64,000 nt of DNA from Ramlibacter sp. PS4R-6 (GTDB lineage Bacteria > Pseudomonadota > Gammaproteobacteria > Burkholderiales > Burkholderiaceae_C), in contig NZ_JBBHKA010000001.1 of NCBI RefSeq assembly GCF_037572775.1, positions 310,001 to 374,000 of the forward strand, read 5' to 3'. The notes under the pieces are model-generated. The model did not search any database. It was not told the DNA's origin and saw only the letters and a program-made list of their open reading frames with translations. Made by a program: the position numbers and the translations under genes. Shown here in pieces: positions 24,107 through 31,270 of this stretch; positions within the stretch are counted from its first letter, which is position 1, and the number at the start of each line of letters is the position of its first letter.

Positions 24107-27100
24107 TTAGCGGAACAGCCACACCCGCATGAGCGAGAGCAGCTGGTCGGTGTTCACAGGCTTGGCGATGTAGTCGCTGGCGCCGGCGTCGAGGCACTTC
24201 TCGCGGTCGCCCTTCATGGCCTTGGCCGTGAGCGCCAGGATCGGCAGCGTGCGGAACTCGGGCTTCTTGCGGATCTCCTTCATCGTCTCGTAGCCGTCCA
24301 TCTCCGGCATCATGATGTCCATCAGCACCATCTCGAGGTCGGGCGTGTTCTCGATCATCTCGATCGCCTGGCGGCCGTTGGTGGCGCTGATGACCTCGAC
24401 GTCGTGGTTCTCCAGCACCGAGGTCAGCGCGAAGATGTTGCGCGCGTCGTCGTCCACCACCAGCACCTTGCGACCGTGCAGCACCTCGCCGGAGTTGTGC
24501 AGGCGCTCCAGCATGGCCTGCTTCTCCTGCGGCAGCTGCGTGACCACGCGGTGCAGGAACAGCGCGGTCTCGTCCAGCAGGCGCTCGGGCGACTGCACGT
24601 CCTTGAGCACGATGCTCTTGGCCATCGTGTTCAGGCGCTGCTGCTCATCCTGCGACAGGTCCTTGCCCGTGAAGACCACCACCGGCACGGCCGCGAGCTC
24701 GGCCTCTTCCTTCATGCGCTCGAGCAGGTCGAAGCCGGTCATGTCGGGCAGGCGCAGGTCGAGCACCACGCAGTCAAAGCGGTGGTTGCGCAGCAGGTTC
24801 AGCGCGTTCTCGCCGCTGCCGGCCGACGTGATGTCGATGTCGTCGTAGCCCAGCAGCTCCACCACCGCATCGCGCTCGATCTCGTTGTCCTCCACCACCA
24901 GCAGGCGCTTGGTGCGCGGCACCGTGAAGTCCTTGAGCTTGTCGATGGCGGCTTCCAGGTTCTCGGTGGTCGGCTCCTTGAGCAGGTACGAGAAGGCGCC
25001 GTGCGCGAGGCCGTGCTGGCGCTCCTCTTCCAGCGTCAGGATCTGCACCGGGATGTGCCGCAGCTCGGGGTCGAGCTTGAGCTGGTTCAGCACCGTCCAG
25101 CCCAGCATGTCGGGCAGGAAGATGTCCAGCGAGATGGCCGTGGGCTTGTACTGGCGCGCCAGCGACAGGCCCATCGCCCCCTTCATCGCCACCAGGCCCT
25201 TGAAACCGCGGTCGCGCGCCAGCCCGAGCAGGATGCGCGCGTAGTGCGGGTCGTCCTCGATGATCAGCAGCACGGGGTCGCCGTCCTCGATCATCTCGCG
25301 GTCGTCGGGCACGTGTTCCTCGCGCGCGACGGGCAGCGCCATGATGGGCACGGCGGTGTCCTGCGGCGCGCGGGTCTGGCGCATCGCGGTGGACGAGTCG
25401 GGGCCCGAGTAGTGCAGGGGCAGGTAGAGCGTGAAGGTCGAGCCCTGGCCCGCCACGCTGCGCAGGCGGATCTCGCCGCCCAGCAGGATGGCCAGTTCGC
25501 GCGAGATCGCCAGGCCCAGGCCCGTGCCGCCGTACTTGCGCGACGTGCCCGCGTCGGCCTGCTGGAAGGCCTCGAAGATCAGGCGCTGCTTCTCGGGCGG
25601 CACGCCGATGCCGGTGTCCTCCACCTCGAAGGCGATCACATGCTGCGATTGCGACAGCACCGGGTGGTCGTGCGACCAGCCGCCGTCCGCGAAGCCGACG
25701 CGCACTTCCACGTGGCCTTGCGACGTGAACTTCATCGCATTGGAGAGCAGGTTCTTCAGGATCTGCTGCAGGCGCTTGGGGTCGCTGTCCATCGAGCGCG
25801 GCAGGTGCTCGCCGAACTTGACCACCAGCGGCAGGTTCTTGGCCTCGGCGATGTGGCGGAAGTTGCGGTCCACCGATTCGCGCAGCCAGTTGAACGAGAT
25901 CTCCTCGACGTCCACCGTCACCGTGCCCGACTCGATCTTCGACAGGTCCAGGATGTCGTTGATCAGGTTCAGCAGGTCGGAGCCCGAGGAGTTGATGTTG
26001 CGCGCGAACTCGATCTGCTTGGTGTTCAGCGTGTTCGGCGCGTTCTCCGCGAGCTGCTGCGACAGGATCAGGATCGAGTTGAGCGGCGTGCGCAGCTCGT
26101 GCGACATGTTCGCCAGGAACTCGGACTTGTACTTGGACGTGAGCGCCAGTTCCGAGGCCTTCTCCTCCAGCGCGCGGCGGGCCTGCTCCACTTCCGCGTT
26201 CTTGCGCTCGACTTCCTCGTTCTGCTGCGCCAGCAGGCGGGCCTTCGTGCCCAGTTCGTCGTTGGCGTTCTCCAGCTCGATCTGGCGCGCCTGCAGTTCC
26301 GCCGTGAGCTGCTGCGACTGCGTCAGCAAGTTCTCGGTGCGCATGGTGGCCTCGATGGTGTTGAACACCGCGCCGATGCCCAGCGCCAGCTGGTCGAGGA
26401 AGTTCAGGTTGACCGCCGTGAAGGGGTGCAGCGAGGCGAGCTCGATCACCGCCTTGGTCTGGTTCTCGAACAGCACCGGCAGCACCACCACGCTGACGTA
26501 CTTGGCTTCGCCCAGGCTGGAGCTGACCGTGACGTACTCGGACGGGACGTCGGTGAGCAGCAGGCGGCGGTTCTCGACCGCGCACTGGCCGACCAGGCCC
26601 TCGCCGAGCTCCAGCGTGTCGGACAGCCGGACGTTCCCCGCCTGCGCGTAGGTCGAGAGCAGCTGCAGCTGCTTGCCCTCGTTCGCGGTGTCGCGGCTGT
26701 GGTAGATCGAACCCTGGTGCGCGTTGACCAGCGGCGCAAGCTCCGACAGCAGCATCTTGCCCACCGTCGACAGGTCGCGCTGGCCCTGCATCATCGAGGT
26801 GAAGCGCGCCAGGTTGGTCTTCAGCCAGTCCTGCTCGCGGTTCGATTCCGTGGTCTCGCGCAGGTTCGAGATCATGGTGTTGATGTTGTCCTTGAGCTCG
26901 GACACCTCGCCGCGCGCGTCCACCTGGATCGAACGCGTCAGGTCGCCCTTGGTCACGGCCGTTGCCACTTCGGCAATCGCTCGCACCTGCGTGGTGAGGT
27001 TGGCCGCCAGCAGGTTGACGTTACCGGTCAGGTCCTTCCACGTGCCCGCGGCGCCCGGCACGTGCGCCTGGCCGCCGAGCCGGCCTTCCACGCCCACTTC

Positions 27101-30100: not shown

Positions 30101-31270
30101 CGCCTGGCCACCGAGCTTGCCTTCCGTGCCCACCTCGCGCGCCACGCGCGTCACTTCCGAGGCGAAGGCGTTCAGCTGGTCCACCATCGTGTTGATGGTT
30201 TCCTTCAGCTCCAGGATCTCGCCCTTCACCTCCACGGTGATCTTGCGCGAGAGGTCGCCGCGCGCGACCGCGGTGGTCACCGTCGCGATGTTGCGCACCT
30301 GCGAGGTGAGGTTGTTGGCCATGGAGTTGACCGAGTCGGTCAGGTCCTTCCACGTGCCCGCTACGCCGGGCACCACGGCCTGGCCGCCCAGGCGGCCGTC
30401 GGTACCCACCTCACGCGCCACGCGCGTCACTTCCGAGGCGAAGGAGCGCAGCTGGTCCACCATGGTGTTGGTGGCTTCCTTCAGCTGCAGGATTTCGCCG
30501 CGCACGTCCACCGTGATCTTCTTGGACAAATCGCCGTTGGCCACGGCGATCGTCACGTCGGCGATGTTTCGAACCTGCGCCGTCAGGTTGCCGGCCATCT
30601 GGTTGACCGAGTCGGTGAGGTCCTTCCACACGCCCGACACACCCTTCACCTGGGCCTGGCCCCCGAGCTTGCCTTCCGTGCCCACTTCGCGCGCCACGCG
30701 CGTCACTTCGGAGGTGAAGACCGAGAGCTGCTCGATCATGGTGTTCACCAGCTTGGCCGAGCGCAGGAATTCGCCCTTGAGCGGGCGGCCGTCCACCTGC
30801 AGGTCCATCGACTGGCCCAGGTCGCCCTTGGCCACCGCGCCGATGGTCCGCGCGATTTCATTGGTCGGGCGCACCAGGTCGTCGATCAGCGTGTTGAAGG
30901 AATCGACCTGCTCGGCCCAGGCGCCCGCGACGCCCGGCGTGGACAGGCGCTGCGTCAGGCGCCCTTCCTTGCCGACGTTGTTCGACAGGCGCGCGGCTTC
31001 CTCGGTGATGCGTTGCGCGTTGCTGATGCACTGGTTGAAGGCTTCGGCGATGCCGCCTTCGGTGCCGCTCCACGTGGCGGGCAGGCGCGTCGCGAAATCG
31101 CCGCCGGCGAAAGCCTTCAGCGCCGCGAGGACCTGGCGGGCCTGCTCGACATCGGCGGCCGCGGGTTCGCGTGTCTGGATCGGTTTGACCTTGGCGTTGG
31201 CGGCCGGGGTGCCGCGGGTCTTGGCGGCACCGTTTTTCTTGCGCGCCTGGGGATGAACGGACTGGTCCAT
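24107..31270 (-). CDS. Giant soluble poly-HAMP hybrid histidine kinase with three receivers
   Basis: 2,387 residues from ATG 31270, where GGAGG lies further upstream than ideal. There is no signal peptide or membrane segment. Residues 1-187 are a basic tail and divergent HAMP-like units. Residues 188-1475 are 14 units of exactly 92 residues, typified by [50 protein letters not shown] and [12 protein letters not shown]. Then come a GAF domain (about 1485-1640), coiled coil, HisKA with H1724 (MSHELRTPL), HATPase, and receivers with D2049, D2171 and D2318. The architecture resembles fungal Nik1/OS-1 osmosensing kinases, which have about five or six such repeats; this one has over twice as many. 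Ligand and output are unknown. The REC-kinase-REC gene follows 9 bases downstream. Confidence 0.93.
26846..30709 (-). repeat. Fourteen 276-bp tandem repeats inside the poly-HAMP kinase gene
   Basis: The period is 276 bases. A marker block, CAGGTCCTTCCACGTGCC on the plus strand, recurs in phase with small changes from about 27,030 to 30,350, and in a diverged form near 30,620. Twelve units are very close at the DNA level. The last two before the GAF domain (26846-27397) are clearly diverged. Confidence 0.92.

What the first reader, a model, noticed from the sequence alone, without database searches (positions are those of the whole stretch)
24107..31270. Giant soluble kinase with fourteen 92-residue HAMP-type units
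Seen: 14 in-phase units of exactly 92 residues (188-1475), then GAF, HisKA (H1724), HATPase and three receivers, with no membrane span. Known: fungal group III kinases (Nik1/OS-1) carry about five or six 90-residue repeats made of alternating HAMP and concealed HAMP modules and sense osmotic stress and fungicides. Inferred: this would be a nearly thirty-module HAMP chain, able to act as a long cytoplasmic mechanical or osmotic relay. It is the best candidate here for an undescribed sensory system.
Basis: partly seen in the sequence, partly recalled or inferred. Interest (0 to 1): 0.78.

Follow-up and report, generated by a model that had tools for sequence, protein, structure and literature searches.

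The report
Poly-HAMP hybrid kinase with partner kinase
This is a very long soluble bacterial signalling kinase built from fourteen repeat units of equal length, a real and intact gene, but it belongs to a widespread, already described family that usually sits next to a second, partner signalling gene.

Summary
In detail: window 24107-31270 (-) encodes an intact 2387-residue protein with 14 units of exactly 92 residues (188-1475), then GAF, HisKA (H1724), HATPase and three receivers, with no predicted membrane span. It is not an assembly artefact: seven genus relatives carry the same 14 units. The claim 'undescribed sensory system' fails. All 80 loci kept from a one-genome-per-species scan carry such arrays, across many phyla. 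Described kin include OsaA of Streptomyces (osmoadaptation locus, more than ten HAMPs) and AskA/AskB of Myxococcus. PDB chains 9TRJ and 9TRK match the N-terminal chain. The 92-residue HAMP pair is published for Candida Nik1. A same-strand receiver starts within 350 nt downstream in 73 of 90 loci examined; 9 of 80 have one within 2.5 kb upstream. Myxococcus askB-askC has this layout and the two proteins bind. Most likely this is an AskB/AskC-like signalling pair. The stimulus is unknown. New member of a known kind, with an upper-end array length.

The parts
24107..31270 (-). poly-HAMP hybrid histidine kinase, 2387 aa (P0001)
   Evidence: open frame, ATG with GGAGG upstream; Pfam HAMP/HAMP_2/GAF_2/HisKA/HATPase_c/Response_reg
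31282..31286 (-). GGAGG ribosome-binding site, 11 nt before the ATG
   Evidence: read from the sequence
30710..31147 (-). N-terminal cap, residues 42-187: weak HAMP (residues 45-80) plus one divergent HAMP-pair unit at 97-residue spacing
   Evidence: unit HMM; sub-threshold HAMP hits E 0.011 and 0.003; lies within residues 33-321, which match PDB chain 9trk_A
26846..30709 (-). array of 14 HAMP-pair units of exactly 92 residues (188-1475)
26366..26779 (-). GAF_2 domain, residues 1498-1635
   Evidence: Pfam 51.3 bits, cut-off 28.6; present in 20 of 20 sequences, the window's and 19 relatives
25925..26128 (-). HisKA dimerisation/phosphoacceptor domain, residues 1715-1782, H1724
   Evidence: Pfam; H1724 invariant in the same 20 sequences
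25415..25783 (-). HATPase_c catalytic domain, residues 1830-1952
   Evidence: Pfam; N, G1 and G2 motifs
24131..25273 (-). three receiver domains, about residues 2000-2380 (boundaries of the first two are mine)
   Evidence: Pfam Response_reg, 3 stretches, best 2269-2380; sequences printed
22370..24097 (-). partner gene, 575 aa, REC-HisKA-HATPase-REC, starts 9 nt after the stop of the poly-HAMP gene, with GGAAGG in the gap
   Evidence: Pfam; gap sequence; a same-strand receiver starts at this place in 73 of 90 loci

Best explanation
The locus encodes a two-gene cytoplasmic signalling pair of the AskB/AskC kind. The first protein is a dimeric hybrid histidine kinase. Its N-terminal half is a rigid rod of about thirty HAMP modules (14 units of 92 residues, each a HAMP pair, plus a divergent N-terminal cap). 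The rod passes a conformational state through a GAF domain and a coiled coil to the DHp helix, switching H1724 between kinase and phosphatase states. Phosphate goes to its own three receivers and probably to the N-terminal receiver of the partner kinase encoded 9 nt downstream, which carries its own HisKA/HATPase and a further receiver. SHOWN (computed): architecture, intact kinase motifs, unit register, conserved gene pairing. INFERRED: dimeric rod, two-state relay, phosphotransfer to the partner. UNKNOWN: the stimulus. From kin (OsaA, Nik1, AskABC) a general stress, osmotic or developmental input is likeliest, sensed by the rod, the GAF or the partner.
For: Domains and motifs. GAF, HisKA, HATPase and receiver are found in 20 of 20 sequences, the window's and 19 relatives. 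After the first step (97-99 residues) 1159 of 1163 unit-to-unit steps in all arrays held are exactly 92, duplicates included. End units are position-specific: against 76 complete relatives the last unit's best match is the last unit in 76, the cap in 73, the penultimate in 67. A same-strand receiver starts within 350 nt downstream in 73 of 90 loci, and 9 more have one within 2.5 kb; controls: upstream same strand 9 of 80, downstream opposite strand 4 of 90. In M. xanthus, AskC is encoded immediately downstream of AskB, and the two bind with mean KD 0.7 uM (PMC7643160 section 7 part 1). In Myxococcus dinghuensis (14 units) the downstream protein's N-terminal part is 51% identical to the window partner's over 134 residues. 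The second poly-HAMP gene of the same genome also has a REC-HK-REC partner next to it, 683 codons aligned without a stop. The homologous N-terminal chain is in PDB 9TRJ/9TRK.
Against: No stimulus, phosphotransfer or interaction is shown for this protein. The downstream partner is not universal: 8 of 90 loci show no receiver within 2.5 kb, and 8 of the 9 'later' cases have cheR/cheB in between. Oxalobacterial relatives (two scanned) have instead an upstream REC-GGDEF-EAL gene, and a Kitasatospora relative a SpoIIE phosphatase without a detected receiver, so the partner's nature varies. AskB did not bind the known ligand; AskC did. The AlphaFold model of three units is of low confidence (mean pLDDT 42) and proves nothing about the rod. 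The first halves of the units are not recognised as HAMP by Pfam.
Confidence: 0.72

Rival explanations
1. Osmosensor as in fungal group III kinases and Streptomyces OsaA: the long HAMP rod itself senses osmotic or cytoplasmic crowding changes and toggles the kinase.
For: The 92-residue HAMP pairs match CaNik1p as published (PMC3848655, passages). OsaA (1829 aa, more than ten HAMPs, no membrane helix) lies in an osmoadaptation locus (PMC9739842, passages). Three actinobacterial plasmid relatives share 62-65% identity in the N-terminal part, and one has STAS and SpoIIE genes beside it.
Against: Deleting osaA gave only a minor delay under high osmolality, osaB the stronger effect (PMC10117811, passages). 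Poly-HAMP kinases AskA/AskB act in development and in responses to glycerol and ambruticin. Nothing at this locus is osmotic by Pfam: of 9 frames scanned around it, the named ones are the partner kinase, a methyltransferase, an SGL-like protein and AMP nucleosidase, and 5 gave no family. No test here addresses the stimulus.
Confidence: 0.3
2. The GAF domain is the sensor and the HAMP array is a scaffold or brake of tunable length.
For: GAF_2 is present in 20 of 20 sequences scanned, although fungal group III kinases lack it (recalled). Array length varies from 6 to 14 units while the end units stay fixed. Removing all HAMPs from CaNik1p activated the pathway without a stimulus (PMC3848655 abstract passage).
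Against: GAF pocket residues were not analysed; GAF domains also serve as dimer relays.
Confidence: 0.25
3. DNA-binding regulator: the repeats contain helix-turn-helix-like elements, as proposed for AskA/AskB.
For: Whole-protein Pfam hits SpoIIID 60.5 bits and HTH_6 30.4 bits over the repeats, the same kinds of weak partial domains reported for AskA/AskB; [quoted passage not shown]
Against: 0 stretches pass on their own, so the score is a sum of weak repeats; one isolated first half gives SpoIIID E 0.094 and four give nothing. Similar sums appear for unrelated families such as GatB_Yqey (51.7 bits) and Laminin_II (40.3 bits).
Confidence: 0.07
4. Chemoreceptor-like adaptation: the poly-HAMP chain is methylated by CheR and demethylated by CheB.
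For: cheR and/or cheB lie on the same strand downstream of the poly-HAMP gene in 12 of the 100 neighbourhoods searched, from several phyla (in one of them, L063, beyond another kinase gene), and in a Deinococcus plasmid.
Against: No cheR/cheB was found next to the window gene. CheR/CheB-linked proteins are not enriched in receptor-type methylation motifs (12 versus 68 proteins, p 0.55-0.73; the strict motif was absent in all 15 proteins printed).
Confidence: 0.04
5. Assembly or sequencing artefact inflating the repeat number.
For: Repeats matching at 81% are a classical assembly trap; some relatives do break inside the array (contig ends and frame breaks).
Against: Seven other genus assemblies give the same 14 units; the same-index unit is the best match for 15 of 15 units (cap included) in four of them and 13-14 of 15 in three. 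The units differ at the DNA level, 66-89% identity.
Confidence: 0.01

Closest known systems
AskB-AskC (and AskA, Amb07), myxobacterial group III poly-HAMP hybrid kinases
   Same: Cytosolic poly-HAMP hybrid kinase followed immediately by a second kinase gene; long N-terminal repeat, HK, several receivers (PMC7643160: passages and section 7 part 1 of 2); a Myxococcus relative here has the same 14 units and a REC-led kinase downstream
   Different: Act in fruiting-body development and ambruticin/glycerol responses in Myxococcus; the downstream partner there binds ambruticin; no such ligand or process is known here
OsaA (SCO5748) with OsaB, Streptomyces coelicolor
   Same: Hybrid kinase with more than ten HAMP domains, receiver, no membrane helix, receiver-protein gene adjacent (PMC9739842 passages; PMC10117811 passages)
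   Different: 1829 aa; partner OsaB is a receiver plus coiled coil rather than a kinase; osaB is reported to have its own promoter
Fungal group III kinases (CaNik1p, OS-1, TcsC, MoHik1p)
   Same: N-terminal HAMP pairs of 92 aa in CaNik1p, hybrid kinase (PMC3848655 passages)
   Different: Five repeats in CaNik1p (four pairs and a single HAMP) against 14 plus cap; three receivers and a GAF here; the fungal HOG pathway is not found in bacteria (recalled)
PDB 9TRJ / 9TRK ('histidine kinase,Gcn4p')
   Same: The 9trk chain aligns with residues 33-321 of the window protein, E 1e-111: the cap and the first unit and a half
   Different: Short fragments fused to Gcn4; title, organism and paper not seen
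Aer2 soluble chemoreceptors (poly-HAMP)
   Same: Concatenated divergent HAMPs (PMC3570549 passages); profile hit to 3vol E 2.3e-5; 15 stretches match the NCBIfam Aer2 model
   Different: No methyl-accepting signalling domain here, but GAF and kinase; the NCBIfam score of 376.9 is below its cut-off of 1200

Membership tests
Bacterial poly-HAMP hybrid histidine kinase (AskA/AskB/Amb07, OsaA kind) | many tandem HAMP domains in the N-terminal half | tested here: met
   HAMP 14 stretches, HAMP_2 15 stretches; 14 x 92 aa
Bacterial poly-HAMP hybrid histidine kinase (AskA/AskB/Amb07, OsaA kind) | HisKA, HATPase_c and receiver domains with intact kinase motifs | tested here: met
   H1724 invariant in 20 aligned sequences
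Bacterial poly-HAMP hybrid histidine kinase (AskA/AskB/Amb07, OsaA kind) | no membrane-spanning segment | tested here: met
   highest 19-aa hydropathy mean 1.29
Bacterial poly-HAMP hybrid histidine kinase (AskA/AskB/Amb07, OsaA kind) | sequence homology to the named members themselves | tested here: inconclusive
   relatives in Myxococcus (L131, 64% in its best segment) and at 62-65% in Kitasatospora, Embleya and Streptantibioticus; the AskB and OsaA sequences were not in hand
AskB-AskC gene pair | second kinase gene immediately downstream on the same strand | tested here: met
   22370-24097, 9-nt gap; 73 of 90 loci have a receiver start within 350 nt
AskB-AskC gene pair | physical interaction and shared phenotype | not testable with these tools
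   known for M. xanthus only
Fungal group III (Nik1/OS-1) kinases | 92-residue HAMP-pair repeats | tested here: met
   compared with the published length
Fungal group III (Nik1/OS-1) kinases | five to six repeats and no GAF between HAMPs and HisKA | tested here: not met
   14 units plus cap, GAF between, three receivers; repeat number, absence of GAF in fungi recalled
Fungal group III (Nik1/OS-1) kinases | acts in the HOG phosphorelay; fludioxonil-sensitive | not testable with these tools
   needs experiment
HAMP domain (both halves of the unit) | two-helix parallel bundle with connector, profile-recognisable | tested here: inconclusive
   second half met (one tested, 36.0 bits, cut-off 25); first half no HAMP hit in 5 of 5; weak profile alignment in register; low-confidence model shows two helix-connector repeats per unit
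Aer2 chemoreceptor | methyl-accepting signalling domain, score above the family cut-off | tested here: not met
   376.9 bits against cut-off 1200; no MCP signalling domain among the Pfam hits

The most novel reading that the evidence does not exclude
Poly-HAMP kinase plus a receiver-led partner is one signalling module found across many bacterial phyla. It has fixed end caps and a rod whose length changes in whole 92-residue quanta (6 to 14 seen here). Unit number would be a heritable tuning parameter for coupling or threshold, and the output is swapped by changing the neighbouring gene (REC-HK, REC-GGDEF-EAL, SpoIIE with STAS, or cheR/cheB plus REC-HK).
Probability: 0.25. Interest if true: 0.6.

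Novelty: new member of a known kind. Interest (0 to 1): 0.3.

Why it matters
The protein itself is ordinary for its family, but its array is at the upper end: its open frame is the longest of the 27 matches found in 397 genomes sampled from the phylum, though frames as long occur elsewhere (2511 codons in the Myxococcus relative L131). The comparison shows two things that make an old question testable. The array varies almost only by whole 92-residue units between fixed end units, and the gene is tied to a receiver-led partner in many phyla. [quoted passage not shown] A bacterial pair with an exact, countable unit number is a good system for asking whether length sets signal coupling.

Tried and rejected
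Rejected: assembly artefact; membrane receptor; Aer2 membership; helix-turn-helix content; CheR/CheB methylation of the family judged by motif content. I take the antisense frame 22400-31366 (+, 2988 codons) as a shadow of the GC-rich coding strand; that is inference, I ran no search with it. Of ten other large plus-strand frames scanned for context, 8 gave no Pfam hit.

Led nowhere: the AlphaFold2 model of three units (35-sequence alignment) has mean pLDDT 42 and pTM 0.33, so I ran no fold search; only its alternation of about 30-residue helices and 14-19-residue gaps, two per unit, is mentioned, as weak support. The first count of partners by longest open frame (48 of 70, the window's and 69 of 81 picked) missed true genes in another frame (seen for L029; L131; L050) and was replaced by the tblastn count.

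Limits of the counts. The 77 complete proteins were chosen by a filter that itself asks for 92-residue steps after the first. Without that filter, of 99 arrays that do not touch a contig end and carry a kinase tail (duplicates included), 93 pass; the other six are four without a found cap (L017, L041, L053, L098) and two with one 93-residue step each (L111, L133). Also left out of the 77: contig-edge fragments, L053/L061/L103 (broken or duplicate), and six genus copies of the second paralogue (L031-L034, L037, L040). In the 90 loci one gene is held twice (L051 = L061), and the 59 groups count the Ramlibacter group three times (g1, Ramlibacter, Caenimonas). One search kept the best 80 of at least 585 stretches that encode some part of the query, kinase domains included, so the 80 favour long arrays like the query and 585 is not a count of poly-HAMP genes. 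The tree is FastTree only, with long-branch warnings. A residue-level comparison with fungal Nik1, OsaA or AskB was not made because their sequences were not in hand. Paper searches listed none that I recognised as describing the phylum-wide pairing; that library is incomplete.
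Full report
WHAT IS THERE. The minus-strand frame 24107-31270 is an intact 2387-residue protein with a good ribosome-binding site (GGAGG, 31286-31282). Residues 188-1475 are fourteen units of exactly 92 residues. Units 1-12 are 76-92% identical and units 13 and 14 are 58-72% identical to the others; third codon positions vary about twice as much as first or second positions. Tandem Repeats Finder reports the same array from DNA (period 276, 13.8 copies). Pfam finds HAMP (14 stretches), HAMP_2 (15), GAF_2, HisKA, HATPase_c and three receivers. 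H1724 lies in an intact H-box, the N, G1 and G2 motifs are present, and no stretch is hydrophobic enough for a membrane helix.

REFINEMENTS. A divergent fifteenth unit precedes the array at a spacing of 97. Tested alone, one second half scores as HAMP (36.0 bits) while first halves do not (0 of 5). The two halves align in the expected register (helix 2 on helix 2) but weakly: with the 14 window units the score beat 30 of 30 column shuffles, with 813 distinct units one of 200 shuffles scored higher. Published work treats the same 92-residue repeat of Candida Nik1 as a HAMP pair (PMC3848655, passages). The low-confidence model (pLDDT 42) shows two helix-connector repeats per unit. So 28 modules in the array, and about 31 with the cap, is likely, but the 'concealed' halves are not proven here.

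NOT AN ARTEFACT. The window lies in a 3.84 Mb genome in 5 contigs. Of 25 genomes of the genus including its own, eight carry a full-length copy at 88-100% identity; thirteen show fragments, broken frames or the second paralogue only, and four (G005, G006, G019, G024) show no clear copy (whose match list is cut). In the seven other full-length copies the units, cap included, correspond one to one: the same-index unit is the best match for 15 of 15 in four genomes, 14 of 15 in one and 13 of 15 in two. Outside the genus this fades: 12 of 15 (L054), 9 (L055), 5 (L131), 2 (L068). The array is therefore stable within the genus and has turned over between distant lineages. A second poly-HAMP gene (2256-codon frame, 11 units plus cap) lies at G000:C1:2738163-2744930.

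HOW WIDESPREAD. They come from Proteobacteria, Acidobacteria, Bacteroidetes, Verrucomicrobia, Myxococcota, Cyanobacteria, Gemmatimonadetes, Fibrobacteres, Actinomycetota and others. In samples the gene is patchy: 13 of 200 genomes of the order (11 of 109 genera) and 26 of 397 of the phylum (11 of 232 genera). In both samples no other genus of its family had it (5 and 15 genomes listed). Relatives from different phyla interleave in a quick tree of the region after the array, which suggests lateral transfer but does not prove it.

THE ARRAY. In all arrays held, 1159 of 1163 steps after the first are exactly 92 residues (duplicates included; the exceptions are two steps of 93 and one gene, held twice, with a step of 70 beside a contig end). 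Among 77 complete proteins, chosen with that regularity as a filter, the number of units after the cap is 6 (7 proteins), 8 (1), 9 (8), 10 (4), 11 (35), 12 (5), 13 (5) or 14 (12). The window protein is thus at the upper end but not alone. The end units keep their identity across phyla (against 76 relatives: last 76, cap 73, penultimate 67, first 92-residue unit 52), while units inside are interchangeable (second 28, third from the end 27). The array therefore seems to grow and shrink in the middle between fixed ends. Expansion or contraction of a poly-HAMP tract is already in print for MXAN_6735 (PMC4603909, passage).

THE PARTNER. The gene 22370-24097 starts 9 nt after the stop and encodes REC-HisKA-HATPase-REC. 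Across 93 loci (the 80 and 13 of the genus chosen for complete genes; three too short at the end), a receiver starts on the same strand within 350 nt downstream in 73 of 90, later within 2.5 kb in 9, and is not found in 8. Controls with the same queries: upstream same strand 9 of 80, downstream opposite strand 4 of 90. Collapsed to genus-like groups, 43 of 59 have it near and 52 of 59 near or within 2.5 kb. Eight of the nine 'later' cases, and four of the eight without one, have cheR and/or cheB beside the poly-HAMP gene or one gene further on. Other neighbours seen: an upstream REC-GGDEF-EAL gene in Duganella and Noviherbaspirillum, an ANTAR-GAF-PAS-SpoIIE protein with an upstream STAS protein in Kitasatospora, CheR then REC-PAS-HK in Deinococcus, and REC-HK-REC in Ensifer. 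So the kinase mostly keeps the company of receiver-led output proteins whose type differs between lineages.

HOW IT LIKELY WORKS. [quoted passage not shown] The most economical reading is a dimeric rod that hands one of two states through the GAF and coiled coil to the DHp helix of H1724, with phosphate passing to its own receivers and to the partner's receiver. The best precedent is Myxococcus xanthus: AskC is encoded immediately downstream of the poly-HAMP kinase AskB, the two proteins bind (mean KD 0.7 uM), AskC and not AskA/AskB binds ambruticin, and mutants change fruiting-body formation and chemically induced sporulation (PMC7643160, section 7 part 1 of 2). A Myxococcus relative here has 14 units and a downstream protein whose N-terminal part is 51% identical to the window partner's. 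In Streptomyces, OsaA has more than ten HAMPs and lies beside osaB in an osmoadaptation locus (PMC9739842, passages), though deleting osaA itself had little effect (PMC10117811, passages). The stimulus here is unknown; osmotic, desiccation or developmental stress are guesses from kin. The desert Ramlibacter genome paper (PMC3164672) has no occurrence of 'HAMP' in its main text.

COMPARISON AND NOVELTY. It works like, and by domain content belongs with, the bacterial poly-HAMP hybrid kinases; the named members' own sequences were not compared. It is like fungal group III kinases in the 92-residue HAMP pairs but differs in repeat number, GAF and three receivers, so I do not file it there. The chain homologous to residues 33-321 is in PDB entries 9TRJ and 9TRK, of which I saw only the molecule name and alignment. 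Verdict: new member of a known kind, with the upper-end array length and the conserved partner as its points of interest.

Noticed in passing
L029 (own genome, G000:C1:2735000-2747500): Second poly-HAMP kinase (11 units plus cap) with a REC-HK-REC partner; immediately upstream is a Peripla_BP_6 periplasmic binding protein with a signal-peptide-like stretch, conserved beside this paralogue in several genus relatives.
   Followed up: partly
L063, L068, L069, L076, L081, L089, L093, L095, L115, L119, L120, L122: cheR and/or cheB on the same strand downstream of the poly-HAMP kinase gene in relatives of several phyla, yet no enrichment of receptor-type methylation motifs.
   Followed up: partly
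L134 (Kitasatospora sp. NBC_00039 plasmid) 7405-14155: STAS gene, poly-HAMP hybrid kinase and an overlapping ANTAR-GAF-PAS-SpoIIE phosphatase gene in a row: a possible link of poly-HAMP kinases to partner-switching stress regulation.
   Followed up: no
L073 6932-8830, L119 7055-8953: REC-GGDEF-EAL gene ending a few nucleotides before the poly-HAMP frame in Noviherbaspirillum and Duganella, suggesting a c-di-GMP output there.
   Followed up: no
plasmid records: 168 plasmid records carry a match to the N-terminal chain, 112 of them Rhizobium; 69 of the 168 are predicted conjugative.
   Followed up: no
L039, L053 (G014): Both poly-HAMP genes of this genome are frame-broken, which may be assembly indels in repeats rather than biology.
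   Followed up: no
window 49948-50231: 15/30-bp tandem repeats whose reverse complement can read PAKKA-like lysine/alanine repeats, as in histone H1-like proteins.
   Followed up: no
window 20732-20928: 24-bp tandem repeats, 7.6 copies, very GC-rich.
   Followed up: no
window 22400-31366 (+): 2988-codon open frame antisense to the kinase and its partner, taken as a GC-rich shadow frame.
   Followed up: no
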